Position numbers and translations under genes: made by a program. The notes beneath the pieces are model-generated. The model saw nothing but the letters and a program-made list of their open reading frames with translations, was not told the origin of the DNA and searched no databases. A stretch of DNA of 40,635 nt from positions 1-40,635 of IMG/VR virus record IMGVR_UViG_3300020000_000004; one strand, written 5' to 3'. Source of the stretch: a virus. The first letter of the stretch is position 1. Each line of letters begins with the position of its first letter. Positions 3,744 through 34,902 of the stretch are shown here, piece by piece.

Positions 3744-3816
3744 AGCTTGATGAAGGAATCGAACCTTCGTCTCTACATTTAGAAGTTTAAGCGCTCTACC
3801 ATTGAGCTAATCAAGC
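3744..3816 (-). tRNA. tRNA, anticodon probably TCT (Arg), divergent anticodon stem
   Basis: The reverse strand folds as a 73-nt tRNA: a perfect 7-bp acceptor stem (GCTTGAT/ATCAAGC), a D arm GCTC-AATGGTA-GAGC, and a T arm GAAGG-TTCGATT-CCTTC. The loop CTTCTAA is the usual tRNA-Arg(UCU) loop and gives anticodon TCT. The flanking anticodon stem pairs poorly, however, with several mismatches. The tRNA body is certain; the isotype and functionality are not. CCA is not encoded. Confidence 0.75.
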
Positions 3817-6022: not shown

Positions 6023-8587
6023 ATGGTACAATTTTTTCAGCAACTTCCAGATCCAGGCCAGCAGCATGCCCAAGAGATTGCTAAAGGGTTTGGCGGTGGA
6101 TTTAGTCAAGGGATTCAACAAGGAATTTCAGCGCAACTGAGTGGATTATTGGCTAAGAAAAAAGAATTGGGAAAGATACGTTCAAATGTTGGTCAGTTGG
6201 TCAAAAGATCTGAAAAATATAAATATAGTGAAGCCACACAAAATCAATTAGAAAAAAGAACCAAAGAATTAGTTGAATCTGGGTTAGGAAACGCAGATGA
6301 AGCAAGCCTTTTTGCCTTTGAAGAATACAATCAAGGTCTTTCCCCCTGGTTGCAAGAAAAGAAAAATTCTGGACTTGCAGCATTAAACGAAAAAAAAGAT
6401 CAAAAAATAGAATCTGATGCCATTCCTAATTCTAAAACTCAAATCCCTTTAAACTTTCTAAATGAACCTAAACCAGAAGGGTTTTGGCAAAGAGTATTAC
6501 AAGGTACTGGTGGTGGTGCTGCCATGCAGGCCCATGCATTAGAACAGCAACGGGAAGCAATCCCACAGTCAATTGCTGGAGGGATAGAGGGAAGCACTTT
6601 AGGAGCAATTAAATTACCAAAAGCACAAACAGAAGCTGGGGAAATTTACAGAGAGCTATTTAAATATGGCGGATTTGGTAAAACAGCTGGAAGGGTTCAA
6701 GGCAAAATTGAAAAGATAATTAAACCTACAGGTCCAGGTGGTAAATTGGCATCAGCTGCTATCACCGGTACTACTGTTTCGGCTGCCCAGCAATTGATTA
6801 ATAAAGGTGAGGTCGATCCAAAAGAATTGGGCATCGAAACTGGAATTTGGACAGGCCTTGAAGGCTTATTTATAGTTGCGCCTAAAGTAATGCGCATCTT
6901 TAAAAAACCGATTGAAGATATAGCCAAGAAAACAGGACAAACCGCGGAAGAGATTTTACAGCCTGCAATAAATGATGCAAAAACAGATTTCGAAGCTGTT
7001 TTAAATGGCGATCAGAAAGAAATAAACAAACTAAAGAATAGAATCACTCAACAAGCACCAGGATCTGAAAAGGTAGCTAAAACTGAGAAGACCGTTTTTA
7101 ATAAAGAGGCTGCTATTGAAGCACGCGAAGTCCATGGTGAAAAGCTTAAAGCAAGTCCTTTTGGTGAATATTTTAGAATAGAGCAAAAGAAAGTCGCCGA
7201 TGAAGCAAAAAAGACACCAGAAACTTTAGCTAAAGAAGCTGAAACAAAAGCACGTATTCAGCCTGAAGTTGAAAAAATTGAAAAAAGTATTTCGTTAGAT
7301 AGAAAAGAAATTAAGGAATTTGAGAATTTAAGAAAAAATGCACAAGGAAATACCGCAGAACGGCTTGATTTAAATATTGCTGCCAAGCAAAAAGCCATAG
7401 AAAAGAAAATGGAAGAATTGAAAAACCTTCGCTATGAAATGAAATATGGCAAAAAACGTCCTACTGAATCTGAATTAGAAATAGCAGCCGAAAAAAGTGC
7501 AAAAGAGCTCGTTGACCAAATTCGAAATCCTACGCCTGAAAATCAAAAGGCATTAGCTAGACAACTTGAGCTTGATAAGCAGTTTTTGGAACGTGCAGAG
7601 AAAATTAAGAATCGCGGTGAATTCGAATCAGAATATAGTCCAGACGAGCATATTCGCATTATGGAAAAATATTCGAAAGCTTATGATGCTATGATTAATA
7701 CTTTAAAAGATGAAGTCAAAGGTCTAAAAGGTGCTAGGGATGCTGAATCACTCAAAAAGATAACAGATAATCGAGAAGCCATCAAACATTTAGAGTCTCG
7801 TCAAAAACGGCACAATGCTAATATTACAAATCAAAAAGATAAGATTATTGCTCTGAAATCTATTGAAGGACCTCCAGGGGCTTTTTTCAAAAATCAACTT
7901 CGAAAATCTAAAAATGAACTTAAAGAATTTGAAAAAGATCTTTTTGCTTTCAAATCAAAACCAGAAACGAAGGCTGAAATAGGAACATCGCATAGGGGAC
8001 AAGAAAAAATCAAAGAAGCAGGCGAATCATTTGAAAAAATCGAAAAGATTGGTGAAAAAATTGCTAAAGATCCAAATTCTAAAAATTTAGAAGTTGCTGC
8101 TGAAGTAACGGGGCAAAAACCTGCTGAAGTCAAAGAAGAAACTGATAAAATGGGAAATCTGTTCAAGGATCGTTCAGAAAGAATTGAACAAGGCAAAGGG
8201 ACTGAGAAACAAGTTGCTCAAACAGCGAATGAAGTGAATAGAACGCTTTCAAATTGGCAGAAGAAAATGATAGCTTTGCCTTTTAATCTAGCCAAAGGAT
8301 TTGGTTTAGGTGTTGCATCAGGATTAATAGAAGAATATTTTGATATTAAGCTTCCATCCTATTTATTAGGAGCATTGGTTCCAGGTAGAACGTTTAGCAG
8401 GATTGGAACGGGATATACAGCCAGTCTTGGCTATAAATGGATTTCAGAAGCTTATACAAAAAAAGAATCTAATAAGTTGCGTGAGTTGAGAAAAAAACCA
8501 TTACAATATGATGAATATGTTAAAGATTTGAGACTTAGATATAAACCTGCGCGAGTGAATAAAATATTATCTGAATCAAGAGAATAG
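6023..8587 (+). CDS. Large coiled-coil internal virion (ejection) protein candidate
   Basis: An 854-residue protein. Its N-terminus (QQHAQEIAKGFGGGFSQGIQ) is Gly/Gln-rich like the preceding gene. Residues about 130-300 carry Gly/Ala-rich segments compatible with membrane insertion (TGGGAAMQAHALE, GLEGLFIVAPKVM). Residues about 300-730 are highly charged Lys/Glu coiled coil (for example EKSISLDRKEIKEFENLRK). A hydrophobic C-terminal part (IALPFNLAKGFGLGVASGLI, LLGALVPGRTFSRIGTGY) follows. Size, composition and place between tail and fibre genes fit an injected internal core protein. No lytic transglycosylase motif is seen. Its end overlaps a convergent microgene by 12 bases. Confidence 0.65.
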   Translation: MVQFFQQLPDPGQQHAQEIAKGFGGGFSQGIQQGISAQLSGLLAKKKELGKIRSNVGQLVKRSEKYKYSEATQNQLEKRTKELVESGLGNADEASLFAFEEYNQGLSPWLQEKKNSGLAALNEKKDQKIESDAIPNSKTQIPLNFLNEPKPEGFWQRVLQGTGGGAAMQAHALEQQREAIPQSIAGGIEGSTLGAIKLPKAQTEAGEIYRELFKYGGFGKTAGRVQGKIEKIIKPTGPGGKLASAAITGTTVSAAQQLINKGEVDPKELGIETGIWTGLEGLFIVAPKVMRIFKKPIEDIAKKTGQTAEEILQPAINDAKTDFEAVLNGDQKEINKLKNRITQQAPGSEKVAKTEKTVFNKEAAIEAREVHGEKLKASPFGEYFRIEQKKVADEAKKTPETLAKEAETKARIQPEVEKIEKSISLDRKEIKEFENLRKNAQGNTAERLDLNIAAKQKAIEKKMEELKNLRYEMKYGKKRPTESELEIAAEKSAKELVDQIRNPTPENQKALARQLELDKQFLERAEKIKNRGEFESEYSPDEHIRIMEKYSKAYDAMINTLKDEVKGLKGARDAESLKKITDNREAIKHLESRQKRHNANITNQKDKIIALKSIEGPPGAFFKNQLRKSKNELKEFEKDLFAFKSKPETKAEIGTSHRGQEKIKEAGESFEKIEKIGEKIAKDPNSKNLEVAAEVTGQKPAEVKEETDKMGNLFKDRSERIEQGKGTEKQVAQTANEVNRTLSNWQKKMIALPFNLAKGFGLGVASGLIEEYFDIKLPSYLLGALVPGRTFSRIGTGYTASLGYKWISEAYTKKESNKLRELRKKPLQYDEYVKDLRLRYKPARVNKILSESRE

Positions 8588-8713
8588 GCGCGTTATTACA
8601 TGAATTAAGATACAAAAACCTACAAAGACAATAATATCTATATACCAAGATTCTTCATATCCTTCTTTCTCAATTATCAAATCTAATTTCCTGTTAATCT
8701 CTTCATTTTCCAT
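8576..8713 (-). CDS. 45-residue single-pass membrane microprotein
   Basis: The reading frame runs from an ATG at 8713 with AAGGA 7 bases upstream. The product begins MENEEINRKLDLIIEKEGYE, a charged helix, followed by one transmembrane segment (YIDIIVFVGFCILIHVITRL) and a short tail. It is the last of four overlapping minus-strand microgenes and overlaps the end of the large ejection gene on the other strand. Size and topology fit a holin, antiholin or small membrane effector; no homology is recognised. Confidence 0.6.
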   Translation of the reverse strand: MENEEINRKLDLIIEKEGYEESWYIDIIVFVGFCILIHVITRLFS

Positions 8714-8861
8714 AAATTTTCCTTGATTCATGTTCAATTTCTTCTTGTTTCGTTATCGTTAGCTTTTTCGTCATATATTCATCTACTTCTTCATAAGTAG
8801 GCTGTCTATCAAGTTTGATGAATAGTTCTTCTTCAAAAATAAAGAAGATGTCGTCGATCAT
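8703..8861 (-). CDS. 52-residue acidic microprotein
   Basis: ATG at 8861, overlapping the stop of the previous microgene (ATGA), with a GAGGA site about 10 bases upstream. The product is acidic and helical, starting MIDDIFFIFEEELFIKLDRQ and ending in a charged HESRKIYGK tail. It overlaps the downstream 45-residue gene by 11 bases. Unknown function; the tight coupling to membrane microproteins suggests it acts with them. Confidence 0.55.
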   Translation of the reverse strand: MIDDIFFIFEEELFIKLDRQPTYEEVDEYMTKKLTITKQEEIEHESRKIYGK

Positions 8862-9061
8862 TTTAACTTATCCTCTATGGATTTTAATCTTTTTTCGTGC
8901 CCAAAATCAGACTCCAGTTTTGTTGTCCTTTCCCGATGCTTTATTTCATCATTTTTTAATTGATATAAGAACGTCAGTAGTGTCAAGAAAAGAATTGTCA
9001 GGGATATATATAATCCCATTTTTTCATAATTTGTAGCAGATTTGGGTTCATTATTTTGCAT
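8858..9061 (-). CDS. 67-residue membrane protein with coiled-coil tail
   Basis: ATG at 9061 lies inside the end of the preceding 25-residue gene, with GGAG 8 bases upstream. One transmembrane helix (MGLYISLTILFLTLLTFLYQ, about residues 15-34) is followed by a charged coiled coil (LKNDEIKHRERTTKLESDF) to the C-terminus. This N-in, single-pass plus helical-domain design is like small spanins (Rz-type i-spanins) or holin partners. Function is inferred from topology only. Confidence 0.6.
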   Translation of the reverse strand: MQNNEPKSATNYEKMGLYISLTILFLTLLTFLYQLKNDEIKHRERTTKLESDFGHEKRLKSIEDKLK

Positions 9062-9128
9062 GTGGGAGACTCCAGTAAATTCCCCAAAAAGCTATAAAAA
9101 CACTAATACCTGTTATCAACCAGAACAT
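9051..9128 (-). CDS. 25-residue hydrophobic leader gene of a microprotein operon
   Basis: ATG at 9128 is preceded by a near-perfect GGAGGG ribosome binding site 6 bases upstream. The whole product is essentially one transmembrane helix: MFWLITGISVFIAFWGIY, then WSLPHAK. Its stop overlaps the start of the 67-residue gene by 11 bases. The strong site and the coupling make it more than chance. It may be a pinholin-like peptide or a coupling leader. Confidence 0.5.
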   Translation of the reverse strand: MFWLITGISVFIAFWGIYWSLPHAK

Positions 9129-9152
9129 AATTTACCCTCCTTTACATATCTT

Positions 9153-9177
9153 AAAAATGGGAGTCTTGCGACTCCCA
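9153..9177 (-). terminator. Minus-strand terminator/attenuator before the microgene operon
   Basis: An 8-bp perfect stem (9158-9165 with 9170-9177) has, on the minus strand, a GCAA tetraloop of the GNRA type followed by five T residues. It lies 25 bases upstream of the first microgene start. It would end any RNA from the structured region to its right or attenuate the microgenes. Confidence 0.65.
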
Positions 9178-9480
9178 AAATCCCCGTAAGGGGCTTGTAA
9201 CGGAACAGAGATGACTTTCTCTATTCTCTCCCCTCGACAATGTTGTAAAGCGGCACTTGGTCTAATCCGTTTCGTGCGTACCCTCTTGCTTGTCTGCAAC
9301 AAGACCTTCCAGAGCCTAGAACTGAGGAAGCATTCTAGGGTGGGTCTTTGGCCTCTATACAACGTAGACTCTTCAGCACTTGTCAAGCTCCGAGTCTTAG
9401 TCTGGACAATCAAAACTTGAGTTTTATCCCAAGCCTCTCCCTTTAGGGAGGGGTCATTGACACCATATCACGCCCATATC
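9178..9480. ncRNA. Heavily structured noncoding region with an IS200/IS605-type end hairpin
   Basis: This stretch has no convincing gene on either strand but is packed with hairpins. They are: CCCC-GTAA-GGGG (9182-9193); a nested stem pairing 9301-9306 with 9343-9348 around 9315-9321 with 9333-9339; AAAAC-TTGA-GTTTT (9412-9425); and an 8-bp stem CCTCTCCC-TTTA-GGGAGGGG (9434-9453) followed by TCATTGAC. The last hairpin, preceded by AAG, closely resembles right ends of IS200/IS605-family elements, whose adjoining RNA is the omega RNA of TnpB. No tnpB, iscB or tnpA gene is present. Candidates are a solitary omega-RNA-like relic, a MITE of that family, or a phage RNA of unknown type. The transcribed strand is undecided. 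Confidence 0.4.
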
Positions 9481-9551
9481 ATGAAAATCATACCCTAATA
9501 AGCCCAATTAACCAAGTCATAGAATTTTCTTTTCCTGTATAAAATAATATT

Positions 9552-9616: not shown

Positions 9617-11953
9617 ATGACAGAGTCTCAGCAAGCTTATGGTTTTCCACAACCTACGCAAACTATTTTCCCTTCACCAGTTATAGCAAACAGAGATCCT
9701 ACAACTAATGATGGTAGAGCAAAAGGTTTTGTAATTGGTCAGTTATGGATAAATAGCGCAAATAACACAGTCTTTTGTCTAACTAATGATGCTGTTGGAC
9801 TTGCAACCTGGTCTCTTACTATTGCTGGATCTTCAAACCTCGACACTTTAACAGCAGATTCTGGAGGAGCGATTACACCATTAGTTGGTGATATTTCTAT
9901 TTTAGGAACTGCAAATGAAATTACAACTACTGGCACACCTAATACAATCACATTCTCTATCCCATCATCCTTTGTAGCACCTGGCAGCGCTTCTGTGACC
10001 ACAACTTTAACATCAGCTGGCGCAACAACTTTGGCTACAACAGGCGCCTCAGTCAATACTTTTGGTAATGCGACAGGAGCAACTTCAGTCACGATTACCT
10101 CTGGAACAGGCGGTGTAGCTTTAGTTTCAACAGGAGCTGGTGATATTACTGCTGCTTCAAGTGATACGCTTTTGCTTGATTCTGTAGGAGTTCTTGAATT
10201 GAACTCATCTGGCGGAAATATCAATATTGGTAACGATGCTGCTGCTCATGCAATTAATATCGGAACAGGCGCTGCTGCCCGTACAATCACTGTTGGTAAC
10301 GTAACCACAACGACTGGATTAGTCCTTAATTCAGGAACAGGTGGAGTCGCTATCAACACAACCACAACTGGAGATGTTGTCGTAACATCAGCTGATACCG
10401 TCCTTATTGATGGTGCTGGTGTTGTCGAGATTAATTCATCTGGTGGAGTCATTGGAATTGGTAATGATGCCGTAGCCCAAAATATCAATGTCGGAACTGG
10501 CGCTGCTGCTAGAACCATTACAGTTGGTAATGTCACTTCAACAACTGGCATTGTTCTTAACTCTGGAACTGGTGGAATTGCAATGAATACCACCACAACA
10601 GGTGATGTTGTTGTAACATCAGCCGATACAGTGCTTATAGACGCAGCTGGTGTTCTAGAACTTAATTCCTCAGCAGGTGTTATCGGAATCGGAAATGACG
10701 CTGTAGCACAGGCTATCAATATTGGAACAGGTGCTGCCGCTCGTGTAATAACTATCGGTAACGTTACAAGTACGACAGGTATCGTATTAAATTCAGGAAC
10801 AGGCAACGTCGCGATAAATACTACGACTACAGGCGATGTCATTGTTAATTCTGCTGATACAGTCTTAATCGATTCAGCTGGAGTCTTAGAACTCAATTCA
10901 TCTGCTGGCGCGATCTCGATCGGAAATGATGCAGTTGCACAGGCTATCAATATCGGAACTGGCGCTGCCGCTAGAACAATTTCAATCGGAACAGGCGCTG
11001 CTGTTGTTGAAACAATCGCAATTGGGGGGACTGGCGCTAACGTCATAACAATTGGTAATACTCAAACAGGAGGATCAATCGCAGCTGGAACTGCAATGAC
11101 CACTGGCACAGTATCTATTGGTGGTACAGGGCTTCATGTAGGAACATTTGATCTGGCTCCAGGTACAGGCGGCCAAACAGTCTCTCTTGCTAATGGAAGC
11201 GGAATTAAAATCCTCCAAATTGGTAATGGTGTTTCAGGAAATACGATCACAATCGGTAATGGTATTAATAGTGTTGCTCAAACGGTGTCAATTTCTGGTG
11301 GTGCAGCTGCTGCTAACTCGACTGTAAACATTCTTTCAGGAAATGCTTCAGCTGGAACGCAGACTTTGAATTTAGCTACTGGAACAGGTGGGAAAACAGT
11401 TCATATCGCAGATGCTGCTGCCGTTAATGCTGTGACAATTGGTTCAACTACTTCAACATCTGCCACAACGATTAACGCTGGTTCGGGAAATATTACTTTA
11501 GTGGGTAGCGTAATTAAATCAACAAATCCATGCTTCATGGGATATCTTGCTGGTACAGCAGTTAATAAAACTGGAGATGGAACATCTTATACATTAGGAA
11601 CAGATGTCCTAACAGTTGTATTTGATAGAGGAACTAACTTTACAACTGGCGGCTTATTTACAGCTCCTGTCACAGGTCTATACGATCTAAGAGCTCAAAT
11701 AGCAATTACCGGTTCAACAATTTCCACTACATATGTAATCAATATCGTAACGACTCTTGCGACTTACACAAAAACATTCATTAAAGCAGCAGGATCACAA
11801 GACGAAACTGTAGACATTAGCGTAATTGCAAATATGACAGCTACAAATACAGCTCTCGTAACAATTGCTGTGAGCGGTGAAGCAGCTGCAACAGCTGATA
11901 TTCTCGGTGGAGCAACAAGAACCACATACTTCTGCGGAAGACTTGTAGGTTAA
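9617..11953 (+). CDS. Tail fibre with 77-residue repeats and C1q-like head
   Basis: A 778-residue fibre. Residues 1-70 form an anchor domain with RDPTTNDGRAKGFVIGQLWI, matched by the fibre at 15303. A single LTADSGGAITP shaft module follows. From residue 163 there are about 3.6 copies of a 77-residue repeat (starts at bases 10103, 10334, 10565, 10796), each with DTVLID, GVLELNSS and AINIGTGAAAR motifs. Repeat DNA differs widely at third positions, so the duplications are old. The C-terminal about 140 residues (FDRGTNFTTGGLFTAPVTGL, then YDLRAQI) look like a C1q/TNF-type jelly-roll head. Probably trimeric, host-binding. It has its own promoter and an AGAGG site. Confidence 0.85.
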   Translation: MTESQQAYGFPQPTQTIFPSPVIANRDPTTNDGRAKGFVIGQLWINSANNTVFCLTNDAVGLATWSLTIAGSSNLDTLTADSGGAITPLVGDISILGTANEITTTGTPNTITFSIPSSFVAPGSASVTTTLTSAGATTLATTGASVNTFGNATGATSVTITSGTGGVALVSTGAGDITAASSDTLLLDSVGVLELNSSGGNINIGNDAAAHAINIGTGAAARTITVGNVTTTTGLVLNSGTGGVAINTTTTGDVVVTSADTVLIDGAGVVEINSSGGVIGIGNDAVAQNINVGTGAAARTITVGNVTSTTGIVLNSGTGGIAMNTTTTGDVVVTSADTVLIDAAGVLELNSSAGVIGIGNDAVAQAINIGTGAAARVITIGNVTSTTGIVLNSGTGNVAINTTTTGDVIVNSADTVLIDSAGVLELNSSAGAISIGNDAVAQAINIGTGAAARTISIGTGAAVVETIAIGGTGANVITIGNTQTGGSIAAGTAMTTGTVSIGGTGLHVGTFDLAPGTGGQTVSLANGSGIKILQIGNGVSGNTITIGNGINSVAQTVSISGGAAAANSTVNILSGNASAGTQTLNLATGTGGKTVHIADAAAVNAVTIGSTTSTSATTINAGSGNITLVGSVIKSTNPCFMGYLAGTAVNKTGDGTSYTLGTDVLTVVFDRGTNFTTGGLFTAPVTGLYDLRAQIAITGSTISTTYVINIVTTLATYTKTFIKAAGSQDETVDISVIANMTATNTALVTIAVSGEAAATADILGGATRTTYFCGRLVG
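10103..10990 (+). repeat. 231-bp tandem repeats inside the first fibre gene
   Basis: Units of exactly 231 bp start at 10103, 10334, 10565 and 10796; the fourth diverges after about 190 bp. They encode the 77-residue shaft repeat. The protein is well conserved but synonymous sites are not. Confidence 0.85.
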
Positions 11954-11963
11954 AGGAGGCATT

Positions 11964-12308
11964 ATGGCTTTTGGTACAAGAGCAGAATTCGATGCTGTCC
12001 GAGAGGTAGCTTTCGGAGGCATATCAGGAACATATGCAGTAATCGGTGGTCCTTTAACAGATCATGCGCGGATTGTGATCTTCACAAATAGCACGAATGC
12101 TGAAGTCTATATTACTGATGACCTTACTAAGAATGAACTTAGAATGGCTGCAAATAGCTTTAAATTGATTGACTTCTCAACTAATAAAATCCGTGATGAT
12201 GGTCTCTTTGTAGCTATCGGAACCCAATTCTATGTCAAACAAGTCTCCGGAGCTCCTGCATCTGGCGGGGTATGGATTGAGGTGATCTCCGCTGTCGGAG
12301 GCGTCTAA
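11964..12308 (+). CDS. Small fibre-associated structural protein
   Basis: A 114-residue protein with an AAAGGAGG ribosome binding site 5 bases before its ATG. It is beta-rich (ARIVIFTNSTNAEVYITDDL, GLFVAIGTQFYVKQV) with no catalytic motif. It lies between two fibre genes and its stop overlaps the next start (TAATG), so it is probably made in step with the spike. It may be a connector or a small fibre subunit. Confidence 0.7.
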   Translation: MAFGTRAEFDAVREVAFGGISGTYAVIGGPLTDHARIVIFTNSTNAEVYITDDLTKNELRMAANSFKLIDFSTNKIRDDGLFVAIGTQFYVKQVSGAPASGGVWIEVISAVGGV

Positions 12309-13972
12309 TGTCCCAACAGGGTCAATTAACAACTGCTGGAAGTGGTGGTGCTGTTGTCGAGACCCTCACTGGGAATAGTGGTGGTCCCGTTGGTCCAGAC
12401 GCAACATTTAATATCAATATTTTAGGCAATAATACTACAGGCATTAATGTTGTAGGAATGCCTGGAACAAATACTCTTTCAATTGTCGGAATTCAAGCTA
12501 CAACTACCCAACGCGGAACTGTCACTTTAGCAACTAATGCCGAGACTATAACTGGGACAGACACTTCTAAAGTTATAACTCCTGATGATCTTAATGCAAA
12601 GCTTGGCGCTCAAACTCTACATGGCCTTCCTATTGGAGCCGGATCTACAGCCGCTTTACTTTGGACTGCTGCCCCAACAAATGGACAACTATTAATAGGA
12701 AATACAGGAAATAATCCCACCCTGGGCAATATTACTTCAACTGGTGGGACTATAACTATCACAAATGGGCCTGGAACAATCAATCTAGATCTTGCCGGTG
12801 GTGGTATAGCCATAGATCAAATCTTTGTTGATTTTAGCAGCGGAACAGGAACGAATCCTGTGGTTCCTAATGCTGGAGGTCAAATCTCTGTTACAGGCGC
12901 TCAAGTAGCAACTGGCACAGTTGGGACTAATGTCATTAGAGCAGCTTCTCTTGTTGCTAATTCTTACACGATGCAGATTCAGAGATCAACCGCAGTTGCT
13001 GCAACCGATGTAACAAAAAATGGAGTTTCTCATTTCAATTCCACAGAGTTCACAGTTGATGGAAATGGATTCGTTTCTTTGGCAGATAGCCCATATTTCT
13101 CATTGACTCCATATATTGTCGGACCCGACATTCATTCTCAATATGCGACAATAGCAGCAGCTATTGCAGCGGCAGTTGGAGCGGGAGCATCTACTGCGTC
13201 TCCTGCCAATATTTATGTTAAACCTAAAAATGGTGGATATACAGAAAATAACACATTATCTGATGGCATAAATATTGTTGGTTTTGGTGGACAGGTATAT
13301 GTGACGGGTAAATTTTCGATGACAGGAAATGGAACAGCATCCCTTTCTAATTTATATCTAACCACCAATTCTGATTATATCATATCCCTTACAGGAGCAA
13401 ATAGTCCTCAACTTAATATTTATAATTGTTATTTCAATTGTAGTAATAATACTGCAATTCTTTATTCTGCTGCTGGAGGAGGAGCAATCTTTATTTATAA
13501 TAGTAATGGTAATCTTGCTACATCCGGTATTGCTTATTTTAATGATAGTTCTGTTGGTAAAATAACATTTATTGGGGGTTTTTATCAAAATCAGGGAGGT
13601 TCCTCGACTGCATCTACAAATAGTGGAACCACCGCATGTCAATTTTATCAAATGGGAGAATTTGGTAATGCCGTAACCACAAGTGGTAGCGGGATATTAG
13701 GAGTTTTTCAATCAAATATGAGTGGTGCACTCATAGTGAATGGTACTACGGGAGCCGATGCAATAACTTTATCCAATATAAATGGAGGCACAAGTTCTGC
13801 TTTAAGTATTGGCGCTGGTGCTACCTGTCAAGTCACTCATACAGATGCGTATTCTTCTAATACTAATGTTATTACAGGGGCAGGAACTTTAATTTATGCA
13901 ATCATTAGTTTTTCTGGATCTTCTTCAACTGTTAATACAAGCACGGTAACACCATTAGCAACTTTAATTTAG
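12308..13972 (+). CDS. Tailspike-like protein with beta-helix domain
   Basis: A 554-residue protein. Residues 17-60 repeat the shaft module of the other fibres (LTGNSGGPVGPDATFNINIL). Residues about 275-480 have the HSQYATIAAAIAAA motif that opens pectin-lyase-like beta-helices, followed by short repeating rungs (LTGANSPQLNIYNCYFNC, GAIFIYNSNGNL, SVGKITFIGGFYQN). Such spikes bind or cleave surface glycans; no catalytic acid pair can be assigned by eye. It lies between the small fibre protein and the glycine-rich adhesin. Confidence 0.8.
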   Translation: MSQQGQLTTAGSGGAVVETLTGNSGGPVGPDATFNINILGNNTTGINVVGMPGTNTLSIVGIQATTTQRGTVTLATNAETITGTDTSKVITPDDLNAKLGAQTLHGLPIGAGSTAALLWTAAPTNGQLLIGNTGNNPTLGNITSTGGTITITNGPGTINLDLAGGGIAIDQIFVDFSSGTGTNPVVPNAGGQISVTGAQVATGTVGTNVIRAASLVANSYTMQIQRSTAVAATDVTKNGVSHFNSTEFTVDGNGFVSLADSPYFSLTPYIVGPDIHSQYATIAAAIAAAVGAGASTASPANIYVKPKNGGYTENNTLSDGINIVGFGGQVYVTGKFSMTGNGTASLSNLYLTTNSDYIISLTGANSPQLNIYNCYFNCSNNTAILYSAAGGGAIFIYNSNGNLATSGIAYFNDSSVGKITFIGGFYQNQGGSSTASTNSGTTACQFYQMGEFGNAVTTSGSGILGVFQSNMSGALIVNGTTGADAITLSNINGGTSSALSIGAGATCQVTHTDAYSSNTNVITGAGTLIYAIISFSGSSSTVNTSTVTPLATLI

Positions 13973-13979
13973 GCACAAC

Positions 13980-15074
13980 ATGACAATAGGATCAAATACT
14001 AGTGGGCATCTTTTCGATACAACCTTTACCACTGATGGAATTTTATTTGCAGGTGCTTCCGGAGTTATTACCTCAACCGCAGCCGGAACCGCAGGACAAG
14101 TTTTAACTAGCAATGGGCCAGGAGTGGCTCCAACCTATCAAGCAACAGGAGCGCCCCCCGTGCAAGCTTTAGTCACAACATTTGATACTTCTACAACATG
14201 GTCAAAAAATGCCTTAACAGTTGCCGTAACTCTTATTATATATTCTGGTGGTGGCGGGGGTGGTTCTGGAAGACAAGCCACATCGACAACTTCAGGTGGT
14301 GGTGGTGGCGGAGGAGGAGGATCAACACGAGTTATTCATCGAATCCCAGCTTCATCTTTTACAAGCCCAGAAACTGTGACTATTGCAGCTGGCGGAACTG
14401 GCGGTGGAACACAAGCAGGTCAGAATACCAATGGAATTAATGGTGGTGTCGGGGGAACTTCTTCATTGGGTGGAATAGGTTCACTTGCACAGGGAAATGG
14501 TGGAGTTGGCGGAACGACAACATCAGCAGCTGGAGGAACATCTCTTACCACTAACTATGTCTATTCCTGGGGAAATGCTGTGGTACCTATAACCGCAACA
14601 GGTCTCGGTGGAGGAGCAGGAAACAATACAGCAGGAAACAATGCAAACGGTTTAGCAATAGGCTCCGTAGCCGTTGCTGGTATTCAATCAATAGGAAACT
14701 TTCCCAGTGGTGGTGGCGGTGGATCAGGAGCAGATTCAGTTACGCCCAGACAAGCTGGAAATGGTGGCACACTTCAAGATGGCCTGGGATCTGCAAATAA
14801 TATTGTTGTTGGTGGATCTGGTGGTATAGAAACCGGAACTATTAATGGAACTGTTGGAAATCCTGGTGTTAGCCAAGGCGGTTATATTTACGGTGGATCA
14901 GGCGCGGGTGGTGGCGGTGGGCAAAGCGTTGGTGTAGTAGCCGGAACTGGAAATACAGGTGGAGCAGCAGGAGGAGGCGGTGGTGGCGGGGGTGGTTCTA
15001 TTAATTTAACAACCTCAGGCGCTGGCGGTCATGGTGGAACTGGTCGAATAATCGTTATAGAATGGTTCTCATAG
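13980..15074 (+). CDS. Polyglycine-rich adhesin
   Basis: A 364-residue protein. A short N-terminal fibre-type domain (GSNTSGHLFDTTFTTDGILF) precedes a strand segment (VQALVTTFDTSTTWSKN). From about residue 90 it is extremely Gly-rich, with runs such as SGGGGGGSG, GGGGGGGGGS and AGGGGGGGGGSI. The end GTGRIIVIEWFS is a typical closing strand. Gly runs separated by variable loops recall the polyglycine-II sandwich of T-even gp38-type adhesins (phage S16). The Gly runs are spelled with mixed GGT/GGC/GGA codons. Receptor binding is inferred. Confidence 0.75.
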   Translation: MTIGSNTSGHLFDTTFTTDGILFAGASGVITSTAAGTAGQVLTSNGPGVAPTYQATGAPPVQALVTTFDTSTTWSKNALTVAVTLIIYSGGGGGGSGRQATSTTSGGGGGGGGGSTRVIHRIPASSFTSPETVTIAAGGTGGGTQAGQNTNGINGGVGGTSSLGGIGSLAQGNGGVGGTTTSAAGGTSLTTNYVYSWGNAVVPITATGLGGGAGNNTAGNNANGLAIGSVAVAGIQSIGNFPSGGGGGSGADSVTPRQAGNGGTLQDGLGSANNIVVGGSGGIETGTINGTVGNPGVSQGGYIYGGSGAGGGGGQSVGVVAGTGNTGGAAGGGGGGGGGSINLTTSGAGGHGGTGRIIVIEWFS

Positions 15075-15302: not shown

Positions 15303-17015
15303 ATGGCATATATTAACCGATCTACACTTACTTATCCTGCAACTAATGCCTTTCCTAACGGCATATGGGAAGATACTCGTGATCCAACAATTGCTGATTT
15401 TAGAAACTTCGCCATCGGTGTAATTTGGATTAATTTTGCTGCTGATAGAGCGTGGATCATGGTTGATAAAACTGTAACCACTGGCATTTGGATTTTAATG
15501 GCAACCACAGGCACTGGAATCCTGACAATGACAGGAGATACAGGCGGAGCTGTCGGCCCAGATGGTGCAAATAATATTAATCTGCTTGGCGGCCCATCTA
15601 TCGTTGTTTCAGGGGTTCCTGGAACTAATACACTCACAATCGACGTCTCTGCTGCGGTTCCACTTCAATTTGACGAAGATGTTGGATCTGCTGCACCTGC
15701 TCTTAACATTCTTAACATTGTTGGAGCTGGGGGTATAACAACTTCAGGAGCCTTAGATACAGTTACGATCACAGCTGGTGGAACATTAGCTAGCCATTTC
15801 ACTGAAGATTCTGGGACTGCCACACCAGTAGCTCATAATTTAAATATTCTTGGTGGTGTTGGTATCACAACATCTGGAGCAGGGTCGACAGTCACTATTG
15901 ATGCTTCTGGCGATGTTGCTACACTTTATACTGAAGATGCGGGGACTGCTGCCCCATCAGGGAATAATCTGAATATTGTTGGTTCTGCTGGAATTACGAC
16001 TTCAGGCGCCGGATCCACTGTTACAGTCACAGCAGGTGGAACAATACCAACTCAATTTACGGAAAATACTGGGACTGCAATTCCAGCTGGTAATGTTCTA
16101 AATGTTCTTGGATTTTCTGGCATTTCCACTACCGGCGCTGGAAATACTATCAGCATAACTCCTGGTTCAACATTAGCGACTCTTTATACTGAAGATGCAG
16201 GAACAGCTGCTCCATCTGGAAATAATTTAAACATCAAAGGATCTGGAGGCATTACAACTTCAGGCGCGGGATCAACTGTAACTGTAATAGCTGGTGGAAC
16301 TATACCAACAAGTTTTGTCGAAGATGCAGGAAGTGCCATACCTTCTGCTCATGTTTTAAATGTCATAGGTGGAACTGGTATCAGCACATCAGGCGCTGGA
16401 AATACGATCACGATCACGAATACTTCTACATCATCCACCACTTTTAATGAAGACGCAGGAAGTGCAACACCATTAGCTGGAGTTTTGAATGTTCTTGGTG
16501 GTTCAGGTATTTCGACGACCGGCGCTGGCAATACGATTACAGTTATAAATAATCTGAATACCGGCAAAGCAGGATTTTTAGCTTTTCTTTCAGCAACTGT
16601 TAATAATGTAACTGGCGATGCAACAGCTTACACCGTAATATTTGACACCGAAGTTTTTGATATTGCTGGGAATTATAATAATGCTACAGGAATTTTCACA
16701 TGTTCTGTTGCAGGTACATATATATTTTCAACTAGCATAAATTCATTTGGATATACAGCTGCTATGACAGATGGGTCAGTTAATTTGTTTATAAATGGCG
16801 TTATTTATAGAGGATTAGGAGGAAGTCCCTTTAGGCAGGCAGCCGGTGCAGCAGGAGATGGGGGTTTAAATTGGGACGCTGTTACAATTGTTCATCTATC
16901 AATAGGAGATACAGTATTGTCTCAAATTGTGATAGCTGGAGGAACAAAAACTGTAAATATTATTGGAGATCTTACTCAAAAGGTTACGAATTTTTCTGGG
17001 GCGTTGCTCTTCTAA
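15303..17015 (+). CDS. Tail fibre with seven 43-residue repeats and C1q-like head
   Basis: A 570-residue fibre. Its N-terminus (TRDPTIADFRNFAIGVIWIN) matches the anchor of the fibre at 9617. One shaft module (MTGDTGGAVGPDGANNINLL) is followed by seven repeats of exactly 43 residues (bases 15657-16559), each with EDAGTA, LNILG and GITTSGAGSTVT motifs. The last about 150 residues, with VFDIAGNYNNATGIFTCSVA then GTYIFS, show the C1q/TNF jelly-roll pattern. It is probably an alternative or second receptor-binding fibre. The ribosome binding site is weak, suggesting lower expression than the first fibre. Confidence 0.85.
   Translation: MAYINRSTLTYPATNAFPNGIWEDTRDPTIADFRNFAIGVIWINFAADRAWIMVDKTVTTGIWILMATTGTGILTMTGDTGGAVGPDGANNINLLGGPSIVVSGVPGTNTLTIDVSAAVPLQFDEDVGSAAPALNILNIVGAGGITTSGALDTVTITAGGTLASHFTEDSGTATPVAHNLNILGGVGITTSGAGSTVTIDASGDVATLYTEDAGTAAPSGNNLNIVGSAGITTSGAGSTVTVTAGGTIPTQFTENTGTAIPAGNVLNVLGFSGISTTGAGNTISITPGSTLATLYTEDAGTAAPSGNNLNIKGSGGITTSGAGSTVTVIAGGTIPTSFVEDAGSAIPSAHVLNVIGGTGISTSGAGNTITITNTSTSSTTFNEDAGSATPLAGVLNVLGGSGISTTGAGNTITVINNLNTGKAGFLAFLSATVNNVTGDATAYTVIFDTEVFDIAGNYNNATGIFTCSVAGTYIFSTSINSFGYTAAMTDGSVNLFINGVIYRGLGGSPFRQAAGAAGDGGLNWDAVTIVHLSIGDTVLSQIVIAGGTKTVNIIGDLTQKVTNFSGALLF
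15657..16559 (+). repeat. Seven 129-bp tandem repeats in the second fibre gene
   Basis: Seven contiguous units of exactly 43 codons without indels. Units 3 and 5 are nearly identical in protein (LATLYTEDAGTAAPSG), while units 1 and 7 are the most diverged. An invariant length argues for a defined structural unit in the shaft. Confidence 0.9.
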
Positions 17016-22972: not shown

Positions 22973-22991
22973 CCACTAAAGGGTGGTTTTA

Positions 22992-23651
22992 ATGTTAAAT
23001 TTATGTCATCTTTGTCAGAAACCAATAGAATTTGGTCAGAAATTTTGTTCGCGCCTTTGTTATCACATCTCTACTAGAGGGAAATACAATAAGGGCCATA
23101 AAAATATTAAAGGTAAAGCATTTCCTAAGGGGAAAAGTGGATATAATCATCTTGAAAAAGTTCGAGTATGCAAATTGTGCAATGAGAACTTTACTAAGAA
23201 AGCTGCTTATGCCCTTTATTGCTCCGATGCCTGTAAAGAAAGAAGTAGGCCTGATGCACAAAAAAAAGATTTTATATGCAAATTCTGCCAAATACCCTTT
23301 AAAAGAAGGGCTTTCAATAATGCCTGTTATTTTTGCTCTAGAGATTGTAGTGGTTTTTTTCAGATGGTTCATTCAAATGTTGCATATTTCTACAAAGCAT
23401 TTTCTTGGTTACCCCATGAATGTGAAATTTGTAAAATTGATGATTACCAGGTTCTCTGTGTTCATCATAGAGATAAGGACCGGAAAAATAATGAAATCAA
23501 AAATTTGCAAATTTTATGTGCCAACTGTCACTACAGAATTCATTTTGGTATAGGAAGGGAAAGAAGAATTAAAATAACAAAAATTAAAAATTCACAGGAG
23601 AAATTCAATGCCTTTAAAAAAAGGAACTTCGAAATCTGTAATCGGTCATAA
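22992..23651 (+). CDS. HNH endonuclease with three zinc-finger repeats
   Basis: A 219-residue protein starting at the ATG at 22992. The first about 125 residues hold three related cysteine units of the form C-x2-C ... C-S-x2-C or F-C-S-R-x-C (CHLCQK/FCSRLC, CKLCNENF/YCSDAC, CKFCQIPF/CSRDC). The C-terminal half has an HNH nuclease signature: CEICKIDDY, VHHRDKDRKNNEIKNLQILC, ANCHYRIHFG. Such proteins are homing-type nucleases or packaging-linked HNH proteins. The separation from terminase argues for a homing-like or host-acting role. The gene end overlaps a 48-residue gene. Confidence 0.85.
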   Translation: MLNLCHLCQKPIEFGQKFCSRLCYHISTRGKYNKGHKNIKGKAFPKGKSGYNHLEKVRVCKLCNENFTKKAAYALYCSDACKERSRPDAQKKDFICKFCQIPFKRRAFNNACYFCSRDCSGFFQMVHSNVAYFYKAFSWLPHECEICKIDDYQVLCVHHRDKDRKNNEIKNLQILCANCHYRIHFGIGRERRIKITKIKNSQEKFNAFKKRNFEICNRS

Positions 23652-29744: not shown

Positions 29745-31787
29745 ATGACACTCTTTCCCCAACTTTCGGATAGCTATTATACAGGCCAAGACAATTCAAT
29801 CCTAAAGTTAATGGATTATACATATGCCAAAAACATCACAATTAATCAATCTTTTTGGTCAGAAGCGGAAATGGATCAGCGATTTAGAGCTGGCGATCAA
29901 TCCATGTGGAATGACATTTATGGCAACATTCCTGCATTTCGACGCAGATCTTTCAATTTCAATCGAATTCGTCGCATAACGAATATGATCACAGGGCATC
30001 AAAGGCAGCATCGCAAGTCGACTATCTGCACTCCTGTTGAGAATTCTGATCAACAAACGTCTGATCAATTTAGCAAAATCCTTCTTTGGGATGATCAAAA
30101 GAATCATGTATTGGAAACGATTTCAGACGCATTTGATGGGGCGATTGTCACAGGCATGAATTTGCTTTCGGTCTGGATGGATTATCGAAATGATCCAGTC
30201 AATGGTGATATTGCAGTTGATAACGTCGCGTTCAATGGCTATCTCATTGATCCCTATTTCAAGAAGATGGACTTATCTGATTGTAATAATATTTGGACGC
30301 GCAAATACTTATCTCGAAATCAGGTGAAATCGCTGCTTCCTGGTAGAGAATCTGAAATCCTGGATATGAAGGGATGGGGCAATCGTGATGGTAAATTTCA
30401 GTTTATGCCTGAATCTTACAATTATGGAATGCAGGATCTATTAACCTATGACGAATTTTGGTACTTAGATTCAAGGAAACAAAAGCTGCTTTGCGATGTG
30501 CAAACAGGCGAAACGATGGAATGGAGAGGACAAGATGAAGACCTTAATGACTTTATGCGGGCGTATCCACAAATACACACTCTCGATCAAGAAATCCAAA
30601 CCGTCAAGCTTGCCATTGTGGTACAGGGCAAAGTTATGTATAATGGCCCTAATCCTCTTGGTATCGATCGTTATCCTTTTGTTCCGGTTTGGGCTTATTA
30701 CGAGCCCCAAATGGCTGACTTTCCTTGGAGAATCCAAGGTGTGGTCCGAGGTCTCAGAGATGCCCAATATCTTTATAACCGTCGGCGAATAATTGAATTA
30801 GACATTCTAGAATCTCAAATGACATCTGGCTTCATGTATAAGGAGAACGCTTTAGTCAATCCTAAAGATGTCTTCTTGCAAGGTCAAGGTAGAGGGCTTG
30901 CTCTTAAAGCTAATGCTCAGCCAGGCGTTGATGTTATCAGAATTGAACCGCCTCAAATCCCTCCTTCGATGATTCAACTCTCAGAATTACTCGGCAAAGA
31001 AGTTCAAGAGATATCAGGTGTTTCAGAAGAACTGCTCGGTATGGCTCAAGATGATAAAGCAGGCATTCTTTCTATGCTGCGTCAAGGCGCTAATTTGACT
31101 ACACTTCAGGGTCTTTTCGACAATTTAGACTACGCTCAAAAGATGCTTGGCGACATACGAATATCACTTGTTCAGGCTAATTGGACTCCAGGAAAAGTTC
31201 AGCGCGTTATAGGAGAAGAGCCTTCACAGCAGTTTTATAATCGAGCCTTTGGTAAGTACAAAAGTATCGTCGAAGATGGTTTGAATACCTCGACTCAAAG
31301 ACAAATGCAATTTGCTCAATTATTACAGCTTAGAGAACTTGGCATACCTGTTCCTGCTGAGATATTGGTTGAATCTTCAACATTGCAAAATAAGGAGAAA
31401 CTCACAAATGCCCTTACTCAACAAGAGCAGCAAGCGTCACAAGCAGCACAAATGCAACAGCAAACCCAAATTGAACTTCTTAAGGCACAAATCGAAGACC
31501 TGCATGCTAGAGCCGTCGCAAATCAGGGACTTGGCCACGAACGTGCAAGCCGTATTCAAGAGAACCAGGCTTTGGCAGTTGAACGAAGAGCCGCAGCCCA
31601 TAAAGATATGGAAGAGGCTGAACTTAGTAAGGTTAAAGCCGTCAAAGAACTCACTACAATTGATTTGGAACAACTTCATAAAGCAGTTGAGATTTTGAAA
31701 TTGATCACTGAAAAGCCTGAAGAGAAACAAACAGCCGCCCCCGAAAGGAAAAAACCAAGAGCGACTGCCAAAAAAACCGCTGCCTAG
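29745..31787 (+). CDS. Portal protein (P22-like)
   Basis: A 680-residue portal, the dodecameric ring at the packaging vertex. The N-terminal region has the P22-like NMITGHQRQHRKSTICTP and DAFDGAIVTGMNLLSVWMDY. The middle has PYFKKMDLSDCNNIWTRKYL, RYPFVPVWAYYEPQMADFPW, GVVRGLRDAQYLYNRRRI and SGVSEELLGMAQDDKAGIL. The last about 120 residues are a Gln/Ala-rich coiled coil (QEQQASQAAQMQQQTQIELL) with a basic tail (ERKKPRATAKKTAA), like the barrel extension of podovirus portals. It is unusually separated from terminase by the reverse operon at 27645-29662. Confidence 0.92.
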   Translation: MTLFPQLSDSYYTGQDNSILKLMDYTYAKNITINQSFWSEAEMDQRFRAGDQSMWNDIYGNIPAFRRRSFNFNRIRRITNMITGHQRQHRKSTICTPVENSDQQTSDQFSKILLWDDQKNHVLETISDAFDGAIVTGMNLLSVWMDYRNDPVNGDIAVDNVAFNGYLIDPYFKKMDLSDCNNIWTRKYLSRNQVKSLLPGRESEILDMKGWGNRDGKFQFMPESYNYGMQDLLTYDEFWYLDSRKQKLLCDVQTGETMEWRGQDEDLNDFMRAYPQIHTLDQEIQTVKLAIVVQGKVMYNGPNPLGIDRYPFVPVWAYYEPQMADFPWRIQGVVRGLRDAQYLYNRRRIIELDILESQMTSGFMYKENALVNPKDVFLQGQGRGLALKANAQPGVDVIRIEPPQIPPSMIQLSELLGKEVQEISGVSEELLGMAQDDKAGILSMLRQGANLTTLQGLFDNLDYAQKMLGDIRISLVQANWTPGKVQRVIGEEPSQQFYNRAFGKYKSIVEDGLNTSTQRQMQFAQLLQLRELGIPVPAEILVESSTLQNKEKLTNALTQQEQQASQAAQMQQQTQIELLKAQIEDLHARAVANQGLGHERASRIQENQALAVERRAAAHKDMEEAELSKVKAVKELTTIDLEQLHKAVEILKLITEKPEEKQTAAPERKKPRATAKKTAA

Positions 31788-32716
31788 AAGCGGAAACCAA
31801 AAGAGAGACGAGAGCCTAGGAGGTGCATTCTTTTACCATTTGGGATTTGCATATAGTAAGGCTCTAACTGGATTTCCCAGTTCTTAGTCTCACCTAAGTG
31901 CCAAATAAATGGCATGCCAACTTCCAACATCCAACTCGCGTCTTTAAATGAAACTGTTTTAGCCTCTAGTTTTGCTATGACAGTCTCTGGATTTGGCAAT
32001 TGCGGGACTTCAGGAATGGGCTGCATAATAACGTTATCTTTATCTACCTGTAACTTCCCATTGACAAGAATAAGCTTATTTCCCATCTTATCTTGCATTT
32101 TTACTTTATTAGTATTAATTATGACTGGATGAGGCTTCTTTTTTTTTGCCTTAACCACAGAAGTTCTTTTCTCCTGAATACTTCGGTATGCTTTAACATT
32201 CAGGCCCATTTCAAATATTTCGCCAAATTGGTGGAGATATTTTGCTCCTGCTGTTGCATAATTCCAATCTCGAATTTTTCCTTCTTTTTTCTCAAACTTA
32301 AAGACAGAAAATCCAATTCCACCATAAGGAATAAGCTGATCGTTTTTAGTAAATGAGTGATTATATCCCATTCTCAATTCGCCATTAATGAAATAATTTA
32401 ATGTATGGTGACTATCTGCGTCATAATTGTAAAATGGTGTTAGTTTTACATCGGCCCCCACATAGGTTGAGTTTGGCATAATTCTTTCATATCCAAGATT
32501 CATAAACCCAAAATTTAAACGATGTTCATGAGGCTCTTTAGCTATTGGCTGTAAATCGCCAGAGCAAATAGAAGGCTCGTCTTTGATTCTAGCATAAGAA
32601 GCTGCTGGTGCTGGTCTTCCATCGGGCAATTTTTGCGGTGGTTGACAAGCACCATTATCAGCTAACAAAATCAGGGGAAATAAAATAACGATATTTGACA
32701 AAACGAATTTTTTCAT
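31784..32716 (-). CDS. Outer-membrane beta-barrel protein, phage-encoded
   Basis: A 310-residue protein. The ATG at 32716 has AGGAG 6 bases upstream; the longer frame to 32755 is rejected. It has a signal peptide (MKKFVLSNIVILFPLILLAD), alternating amphipathic strands (HRLNFGFMNLGYERIMP, YFINGELRMGYNHSF, WNYATAGAKYLHQFGEIFEM), and a basic insert near residue 200 (VKAKKKKPHPV). The C-terminus SRLSFGFRF ends in Phe, the signature recognised by BAM for outer-membrane insertion. It likely changes the host surface (exclusion, receptor masking or virulence). Its stop overlaps the portal end. Confidence 0.75.
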   Translation of the reverse strand: MKKFVLSNIVILFPLILLADNGACQPPQKLPDGRPAPAASYARIKDEPSICSGDLQPIAKEPHEHRLNFGFMNLGYERIMPNSTYVGADVKLTPFYNYDADSHHTLNYFINGELRMGYNHSFTKNDQLIPYGGIGFSVFKFEKKEGKIRDWNYATAGAKYLHQFGEIFEMGLNVKAYRSIQEKRTSVVKAKKKKPHPVIINTNKVKMQDKMGNKLILVNGKLQVDKDNVIMQPIPEVPQLPNPETVIAKLEAKTVSFKDASWMLEVGMPFIWHLGETKNWEIQLEPYYMQIPNGKRMHLLGSRLSFGFRF

Positions 32717-32805
32717 AGCTCTCCTTTTGAGGTTAGAATTCAAAAATAACAACATAGCTTATTGCCATTTCCAAAAAAAGACTAAAAATATTTTTATATA
32801 TATAG

Positions 32806-33984: not shown

Positions 33985-34902
33985 ATGAAAAAAACATTTG
34001 TTATCGGGATCTTAAGTCTACTTTCGCTTTCTGCTGATTATCATGAGCCATCCGTTGGATTTAACATTGATGCTCGTTATCCATTTTCAATGCCTAAAAT
34101 CAGTTTAAACCTTGAACATCAGTCTACTTTAGAGCTTGATGATGATAACATAATTATTTTACATGCTTTAACTCATCCCTATTCGCATAAAGTGTTCCAT
34201 CATGAGCTAGGAGTCGGCTATCGCAAGTTCTACGATAATTTCGGCTTTGGAAGCAATTTCGTCTATGGCAATCACAATTCCTGGGGATTTTTCAATCATC
34301 AACTGATTCCTGGTGTAGAGATCTTTTATGATCATTTCACTCTGGTTTATAATAGATACATCCCAGTTAAAACTAGCGTAGAATTCGAAGATAATAAATA
34401 CTTGTTTCATGATGTATCTGAAATCTGCTTATCTTATCGGCCTTCGAAAAAATACGAATTTAGTGTTACTACGAATTTCAACCATCAAACAAAGCGAGTT
34501 GGGTATGGTGGAACAGTTAGCGCATTTCTTTTTGACAACATCAAGCTTTCTGTAACCCCTTATTGTGAACCTCAAGTTCGAAGTGGTATTGCCTTTTCAA
34601 TCGGCTATCATTTTGGTGGCGTCACGAAATTGATCAATCAGAAATTAACCAAGTCCCATCGTTTCTTCTACACTTCTGAGAAAAAAGAAGTTGAGAAGTT
34701 TATAGATAAATCTGTTGGGTATCTTATGCCAACACATGCTCCTGTTGTTTTAACACCCGTTCAATTTGATCCTGATAATTTCGTGATAGAGAATCCACCT
34801 GAACCAGTCGTTGAAGAAAAGCCAAAAGACAAACCTAAAGATCCTACTAAAAGCTGGTGGGAATGGGTTGTCACTCCTCCTCAAACGAAGCCTAAGGCTT
34901 GA
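33985..34902 (+). CDS. Inverse-autotransporter-like beta-barrel protein
   Basis: A 305-residue protein with a short signal peptide (MKKTFVIGILSLLSLSA). The barrel part has GVGYRKFYDNFGFGSNFVYG, FFNHQLIPGVEIFYDHF and LVYNRYIPVKTSVEF. These resemble the inverse autotransporter (intimin/invasin) beta-domain pattern of paired Gly-Tyr strands. Further strands (SGIAFSIGYHFGG) close the barrel at about residue 212. A helix and a Pro/Lys-rich tail (PKDKPKDPTKSWWEWVV) follow. No Ig-like passenger is present. Assignment is by pattern; a surface or exclusion function is inferred. Confidence 0.65.
   Translation: MKKTFVIGILSLLSLSADYHEPSVGFNIDARYPFSMPKISLNLEHQSTLELDDDNIIILHALTHPYSHKVFHHELGVGYRKFYDNFGFGSNFVYGNHNSWGFFNHQLIPGVEIFYDHFTLVYNRYIPVKTSVEFEDNKYLFHDVSEICLSYRPSKKYEFSVTTNFNHQTKRVGYGGTVSAFLFDNIKLSVTPYCEPQVRSGIAFSIGYHFGGVTKLINQKLTKSHRFFYTSEKKEVEKFIDKSVGYLMPTHAPVVLTPVQFDPDNFVIENPPEPVVEEKPKDKPKDPTKSWWEWVVTPPQTKPKA

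What the first reader, a model, noticed from the sequence alone, without database searches (positions are those of the whole stretch)
9153..9480. Structured noncoding locus resembling a solitary omega-RNA or IS200/IS605 relic
About 330 bases hold at least five strong hairpins, including a nested long-range stem (9301-9348). The last, AAG-CCTCTCCC-TTTA-GGGAGGGG-TCATTGAC, looks like an IS200/IS605 right end next to which TnpB omega RNAs are encoded. There is no tnpA, tnpB or iscB in the genome. A guide-like RNA without its nuclease in a phage, next to receptor-binding genes, could use a host TnpB/IscB, could be a MITE, or could be a new phage RNA. Read on the other strand, the RNA would end at the GNRA-loop terminator at 9153-9177.
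Basis: partly seen in the sequence, partly recalled or inferred. Interest (0 to 1): 0.66.

Follow-up and report, generated by a model that had tools for sequence, protein, structure and literature searches.

The report
Phage-borne IscB guide RNA lacking nuclease
A phage genome carries a complete guide RNA of the IscB (Cas9-ancestor) type without the cutting enzyme, and its guide matches the uninterrupted version of the same spot in a sister phage, as if the phage could borrow a bacterial nuclease to attack or convert its rivals.

Summary
The locus is real and is a HEARO/IscB omega RNA (Rfam RF02033, 104.5 bits, gathering 83, all 211 model positions). It lies on the minus strand, with scaffold at 9461-9223. 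The window is a complete phage genome (127-bp exact end repeat) with no IscB and no TnpA. Three syntenic sister phages lack the segment (~9142-9483), so it is a recent insertion; its GC is 47% against 30% in the flanks.

Layout in transcription order: a weak promoter-like site (9515-9487), a ~15-21-nt guide (9482-9462), the scaffold, the conserved 3' hairpin that precedes iscB elsewhere, then an intrinsic terminator (9177-9153) where iscB and the right-end hairpin would be. The 15 TAM-proximal guide bases plus ATGA (the likely TAM) match one IMG/VR contig exactly: the empty site of a sister phage, between the -35 and -10 of the promoter for a small operon. The phage's own copy of that site carries four mismatches, three of them in the seed.

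Best reading: a trans-acting omega RNA gene that would need an IscB from the host and would target empty alleles in co-infecting relatives. Identity is firm; activity is inferred, and a dead relic remains a serious rival.

The parts
9142..9483 (-). Inserted segment: absent from three syntenic sister phages; edges uncertain by about 10 bases on the left and about 20 on the right
   Evidence: homology to L008, L048 and L052 stops at 9141 and resumes at 9484; GC 47% against 30% and 29% in the flanks
9487..9515 (-). Promoter-like site upstream of the guide: -35 TTGGTT (9510-9515), 17-nt spacer, -10 TATGAT (9487-9492)
   Evidence: 8 of 12 to consensus, below the scan's cut-off; in all three sister phages the orthologous site is TTGGGA-N17-TATGAT, with TG before the -10 in L008 and L052. 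Inferred start near 9480
9488..9506 (-). The phage's own diverged copy of the target site, TGGGCTTATTAGGGT|ATGA, with mismatches to the guide at -4, -7, -8 and -10
9462..9482 (-). Guide: ATGATATGGGCGTGATATGGT; the 15 bases next to the scaffold (9462-9476) match the empty site of L008 exactly
   Evidence: Position from established IscB anatomy (guide is 5' of the scaffold, PMC9640706); match
9223..9461 (-). Omega RNA scaffold (HEARO, RF02033), complete
   Evidence: 62 of 65 highly conserved columns kept; 52 of 58 pairs standard
9181..9203 (-). 3' extension CCGTTACAAGCCCCTTACGGGGA, equivalent to CCGTTACAAGGCCCGTAAGGGC just before iscB in L070 and L072
   Evidence: sequence comparison
9153..9177 (-). 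Intrinsic terminator TGGGAGTCGCAAGACTCCCA-TTTTT, in place of the iscB start
   Evidence: absent from sister phages
8576..9128 (-). Downstream operon of small ORFs (25, 67, 52 and 53 aa; the first two hydrophobic by eye) whose ancestral promoter is the targeted site
   Evidence: orthologues of the first two in L008, L048 and L052

Best explanation
This is a free-standing omega RNA gene of the IscB (HEARO) kind that inserted into the promoter/leader region of a small operon in a podovirus-like phage and no longer carries iscB or transposon right-end sequences. It is probably transcribed from the operon's promoter copy just upstream (9515-9487), so the RNA would begin with a ~19-21-nt guide, continue through the scaffold, and stop at the terminator at 9177-9153. 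In a cell that contains a compatible IscB (from a host IS element or another phage), the RNA would load that protein and lead it to the empty allele TGGGCGTGATATGGT|ATGA in co-infecting sister phages. Cutting there would destroy the rival or provoke repair from the inserted allele, a homing-like drive. The phage itself is spared because its guide copy has no adjacent TAM and its remaining copy of the site is mismatched in the seed. Shown here: RNA family, strand, insertion, absence of iscB and tnpA, terminator-like site, guide identity to a sister's empty site, and mismatched own site. Inferred: promoter use, supply of IscB in trans, cleavage, benefit.
For: Full-length RF02033 match at 104.5 bits. 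62 of 65 columns that are at least 90% conserved in other HEAROs are kept, against 90 of 154 other columns. Closest omega RNAs (~79%) are IscB-linked Caballeronia loci. Helices covary: 159 cells changed on both sides, against 58 in shuffles and at most 49 when slid. The window is a complete genome, 127-bp exact end repeat, without IscB or TnpA. The insertion is absent at the orthologous site of three relatives, and none of 41 related records has a HEARO. Guide plus NTGA occurs in 1 contig of IMG/VR, the syntenic empty site of L008; 15 of 15 bases match, which covers the 13-15-nt effective guide length of IscB (PMC13180657) and the ~14 TAM-proximal pairs needed for cleavage (PMC9640706). In seven of eight right ends read elsewhere the element end is followed by ATGA. 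Terminator found on the correct strand.
Against: No host is known, and no compatible IscB was found that could be tied to this phage. The copy comes from a single genome. Six of 58 pairs are non-standard. The window's promoter is weaker than the sisters' (8/12, no TG; not called by the scan). The guide match may be a mere trace of the insertion event rather than a selected target. The local tandem copy of the site (guide copy plus resident copy) is not explained by a simple insertion 5' of ATGA.
Confidence: 0.5

Rival explanations
1. Decaying relic: an IscB element inserted at this site and lost iscB and its right end; the RNA has no present function, and the guide match only records where it once inserted.
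For: No iscB and no right-end hairpin (for comparison); six non-standard pairs; 3 of 65 conserved columns changed; weak promoter; single copy.
Against: The scaffold is complete, and one of the broken pairs (U-U at pair 2-56) appears also in the IscB-linked L060. A terminator sits where iscB would start, and a promoter-like site stands ~20 nt upstream of the scaffold. The guide copy is still identical to the sister site, while the phage's own copy of that site has diverged by 4 of 15 bases.
Confidence: 0.33
2. RNA-guided repression: the RNA leads a nuclease-dead or non-cutting IscB-like protein to the promoter of the small operon in relatives or in itself, in the manner of TldR.
For: The target lies between the -35 and -10 of a promoter conserved in all three sister phages, and TldR shows that phages use guide RNAs for transcription control (PMC13418256, found, abstract only).
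Against: No effector gene is present in the phage, whereas TldR phages encode theirs. The promoter position follows automatically if the site happened to be the insertion site. The phage's own site is mismatched in the seed.
Confidence: 0.08
3. Non-autonomous transposon (MITE) of an IscB/IS605-like element, moved by a TnpA in trans.
For: Solitary HEAROs with a right-end hairpin and an ATGA flank do exist in bacteria (L063, L067) and in a 116-kb viral contig (L075).
Against: This copy has no right-end hairpin, ends in a terminator, and has no close copies among viral contigs or in the bacterial hits (best ~79%).
Confidence: 0.07
4. An unrelated phage RNA that resembles HEARO by chance.
For: None beyond general caution.
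Against: E = 1.2e-20 over all model positions; none of 14 control genomes reached the family cut-off.
Confidence: 0.01

Closest known systems
HEARO / IscB omega RNA (Rfam RF02033), as in IscB-linked loci of Caballeronia (L070, L072)
   Same: Scaffold structure and conserved bases, guide position, and the conserved hairpin between scaffold and iscB
   Different: No iscB downstream; an intrinsic terminator replaces it; located in a phage; no right end
Solitary HEARO elements in bacteria and in viral contig G042 (L063, L067, L075)
   Same: HEARO without an adjacent iscB; G042 also holds a HEARO with IscB, so a solitary RNA and an IscB can share one genome
   Different: Those have a right-end hairpin and look like mobile non-autonomous copies; this one has neither a right end nor an IscB in the genome
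Homing / gene-drive use of OMEGA nucleases (TnpB on plasmids, PMC11870625)
   Same: The guide records the insertion site and matches the empty allele
   Different: There the nuclease is encoded in cis and activity was shown; here the nuclease is missing and activity is inferred
TldR, phage-encoded RNA-guided repressors (PMC13418256)
   Same: Phage guide RNA whose match lies on a promoter
   Different: TldR is TnpB-derived and encoded by the phage; no effector here

Membership tests
HEARO / IscB omega RNA (RF02033) | Covariance-model score above the curated cut-off over the full model | tested here: met
   104.5 against 83 bits, positions 1-211 of 211
HEARO / IscB omega RNA (RF02033) | Homologues lie 5' of iscB genes | tested here: met
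   Most bacterial homologues have an IscB reading frame directly downstream
HEARO / IscB omega RNA (RF02033) | Covarying helices | tested here: met
   34 pairs changed on both sides; score 0.368 against 0.154 shuffled and at most 0.119 slid
Autonomous IscB OMEGA system | iscB encoded next to the omega RNA | tested here: not met
   tblastn with IscB proteins and PF14239 find none in the complete genome
Autonomous IscB OMEGA system | Guide matches a target followed by a TAM | tested here: met
   15 of 15 bases plus ATGA in the empty site of L008. That ATGA is the TAM is inferred from element ends, not assayed
Autonomous IscB OMEGA system | RNA-guided cleavage | not testable with these tools
   Needs biochemistry or an interference assay
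IS200/IS605-type element or MITE | Left-end and right-end hairpins | tested here: not met
   Left end present; nothing like the right-end hairpin CCTRAAGG..TCTCGCG..ATGA between 9222 and 9142 (compare)
IS200/IS605-type element or MITE | TnpA in cis | tested here: not met
   PF01797 not found
TnpB omega RNA / IS605 right end | Match to a TnpB-associated RNA family, or a tnpB upstream | tested here: not met
   Rfam search of the region lists only HEARO above its cut-off. No dedicated TnpB protein search was run

The most novel reading that the evidence does not exclude
The phage has turned an IscB omega RNA into a stand-alone weapon or homing gene. It carries only the guide RNA, uses a nuclease already present in the host, and targets the promoter of a small operon in rival sister phages, while its own copy of the site has changed in the seed to escape.
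Probability: 0.27. Interest if true: 0.86.

Novelty: new variant of a known kind. Interest (0 to 1): 0.62.

Why it matters
OMEGA guide RNAs are usually studied together with their nuclease inside transposons. A phage that keeps only the guide RNA, with a guide matching the empty allele of a sister phage, would show that RNA-guided homing or phage-phage exclusion can work with a borrowed nuclease. It gives a concrete, testable pair: one RNA and one natural target with natural target variants.

Tried and rejected
TnpB/IS605 right-end reading: rejected, since the hairpin is the first hairpin of a HEARO scaffold. MITE with close copies: pattern for the scaffold core gave 0 other viral contigs and 16 bacterial loci, none above ~79% identity. 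BLASTN of the region against annotated phages: no match. Plasmids: only distant Cupriavidus hits over half the RNA. Host search failed: relatives cannot be drawn for a virus record; the portal and terminase are only remotely like those of known phages; RecT likewise; an outer-membrane-like protein has no plasmid match. A DNA search of 369 genomes of one class and 388 of one phylum found no closer omega RNA. No covariance model was built because Rfam already has one. A simple insertion 5' of ATGA explains the guide but not the second, upstream copy of the site; this stays unexplained.

Full report
WHAT IS THERE. The flagged stretch contains a complete match to the Rfam family HEARO (RF02033), the omega RNA of IscB nucleases, on the minus strand at 9461-9223: 104.5 bits against a cut-off of 83, all 211 model positions, E = 1.2e-20 over the window (alignment; repeated). 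The last hairpin (9434-9452) is the first hairpin of the scaffold, the nested stem (9301-9348) is its central conserved hairpin, and the GNRA-loop hairpin is an intrinsic terminator on the same strand.

IS THE SCAFFOLD INTACT? Of 58 model pairs, 52 are standard pairs in the window. Of 65 alignment columns at least 90% conserved in 20 other HEAROs, the window keeps 62, but it agrees with the majority in only 90 of the 154 other columns. Across 19 sequences the structure is supported by covariation: 159 cells changed on both sides against 58 in shuffles, and at most 49 when the partner is slid by 1-3 columns. The closest RNAs found, about 79% identical, come from Caballeronia loci where iscB follows. 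Beyond the Rfam model the window also keeps the hairpin CCGTTACAAG-CCCC-TTAC-GGGG that precedes iscB in L070 and L072; a terminator then follows instead of iscB.

WHERE IT SITS. The window has exact 127-base end repeats, so it is a complete phage genome. It encodes a P22-like portal, a terminase, RecT and a YqaJ nuclease. It has no IscB by tblastn with five IscB proteins or by PF14239, and no TnpA by PF01797. The RNA lies between the tail-like gene at 9617 (+) and a small operon on the minus strand (9128-8576).

INSERTION. Three sister phages cover the locus (L008, L048, L052). Their flanks are about 75% identical to the window, and all three lack the segment 9142-9483. None of 41 related records contains a HEARO. 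The segment is richer in G+C (47%) than its flanks (30% and 29%).

GUIDE AND TARGET. In IscB systems the guide is the 5' end of the omega RNA, directly before the scaffold (PMC9640706). Here that reads ATGATATGGGCGTGATATGGT. The pattern GGGCGTGATATGGT-NTGA occurs in one contig of IMG/VR (the window's own record may be left out of such searches): L008, at the orthologous empty site. The match is 15 of 15 bases next to ATGA. Published work gives 13-15 nt as the effective guide length for one IscB (PMC13180657), and requires the ~14 TAM-proximal pairs with a seed at -8 to -1 for another (PMC9640706). In L048 and L052 the same site keeps the seed but differs at -10, -11, -12 and -14. The phage's own upstream copy differs at -4, -7, -8 and -10. 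ATGA as the TAM is supported by element ends elsewhere: seven of eight right ends read here are followed by ATGA, which agrees with my memory of the original HEARO description (not available in the library).

PROMOTER. In all three sisters the target lies between a -35 (TTGGGA) and a -10 (TATGAT), 17 bases apart, just upstream of the small operon. In the window a weaker version (TTGGTT-N17-TATGAT, 8 of 12) lies upstream of the guide, so transcription would start near 9480 and give a guide of about 19-21 nt. The scan did not call this site, so promoter use is an inference.

MECHANISM. The best-supported reading is a guide RNA that works in trans. If the cell holds a compatible IscB, the RNA would lead it to empty alleles in co-infecting sister phages, either destroying them or converting them by repair, much as TnpB drives insertion sequences through plasmid populations (PMC11870625). 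The phage is protected because the guide copy is followed by GTCA rather than ATGA, and its other copy is mismatched in the seed. The nuclease supply, the cleavage and the benefit are not shown. A dead relic is the main rival: loss of iscB and of the right end is exactly what decay would give, and a guide that matches the empty site is automatic after insertion.

UNEXPLAINED. The window carries two neighbouring copies of the target region: the guide copy, identical to L008, and a diverged copy with promoter and ATGA. A single insertion 5' of ATGA would give one copy, with ATGA on the far side of the element. A tandem duplication before insertion, or recombination with a sister phage, could explain it, but three relatives are too few to decide.

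NOVELTY. Solitary HEAROs are not new: one bacterial genome here has 15 HEARO matches and another 8, several without iscB, and a 116-kb viral contig has one besides an IscB-linked copy. Those look like transposon derivatives with right ends. A right-end-less, terminator-bearing omega RNA in a phage with no IscB, with a guide against a sister's empty site, is a new variant of a known kind.

Noticed in passing
window 3744-3816 (-): Second of two adjacent phage tRNA genes: ARAGORN reports a four-base anticodon (tcta) and the anticodon stem pairs poorly; either a degenerate Arg(TCT) tRNA or an unusual decoder.
   Followed up: no
viral contig G042 (L073, L075): A 116-kb viral contig carries a HEARO with IscB and, 14 kb away, a solitary HEARO with a right-end hairpin inserted directly before an ATGA start codon.
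   Followed up: partly
G056 (L065, L067, L069) and G057 (L063): Bacterial genomes with 15 and 8 HEARO matches, some solitary and two inserted exactly at the ATG of a gene (one looks like bioD, by eye).
   Followed up: partly
window 22983-23651 (+): Free-standing HNH protein with zinc-finger-like cysteines, possibly a separate homing endonuclease (PF13392, E = 0.003).
   Followed up: no
window 15303-17015 (+): Repetitive tail-like protein with a C1q domain at its C-terminus, next to other repetitive proteins at 9617-15074.
   Followed up: no
window 31784-32755 (-) and 33985-34902 (+): Two proteins with signal-peptide-like starts that look like outer-membrane barrels by eye; no Pfam match, and the second has no plasmid match. 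They might point to the host.
   Followed up: partly
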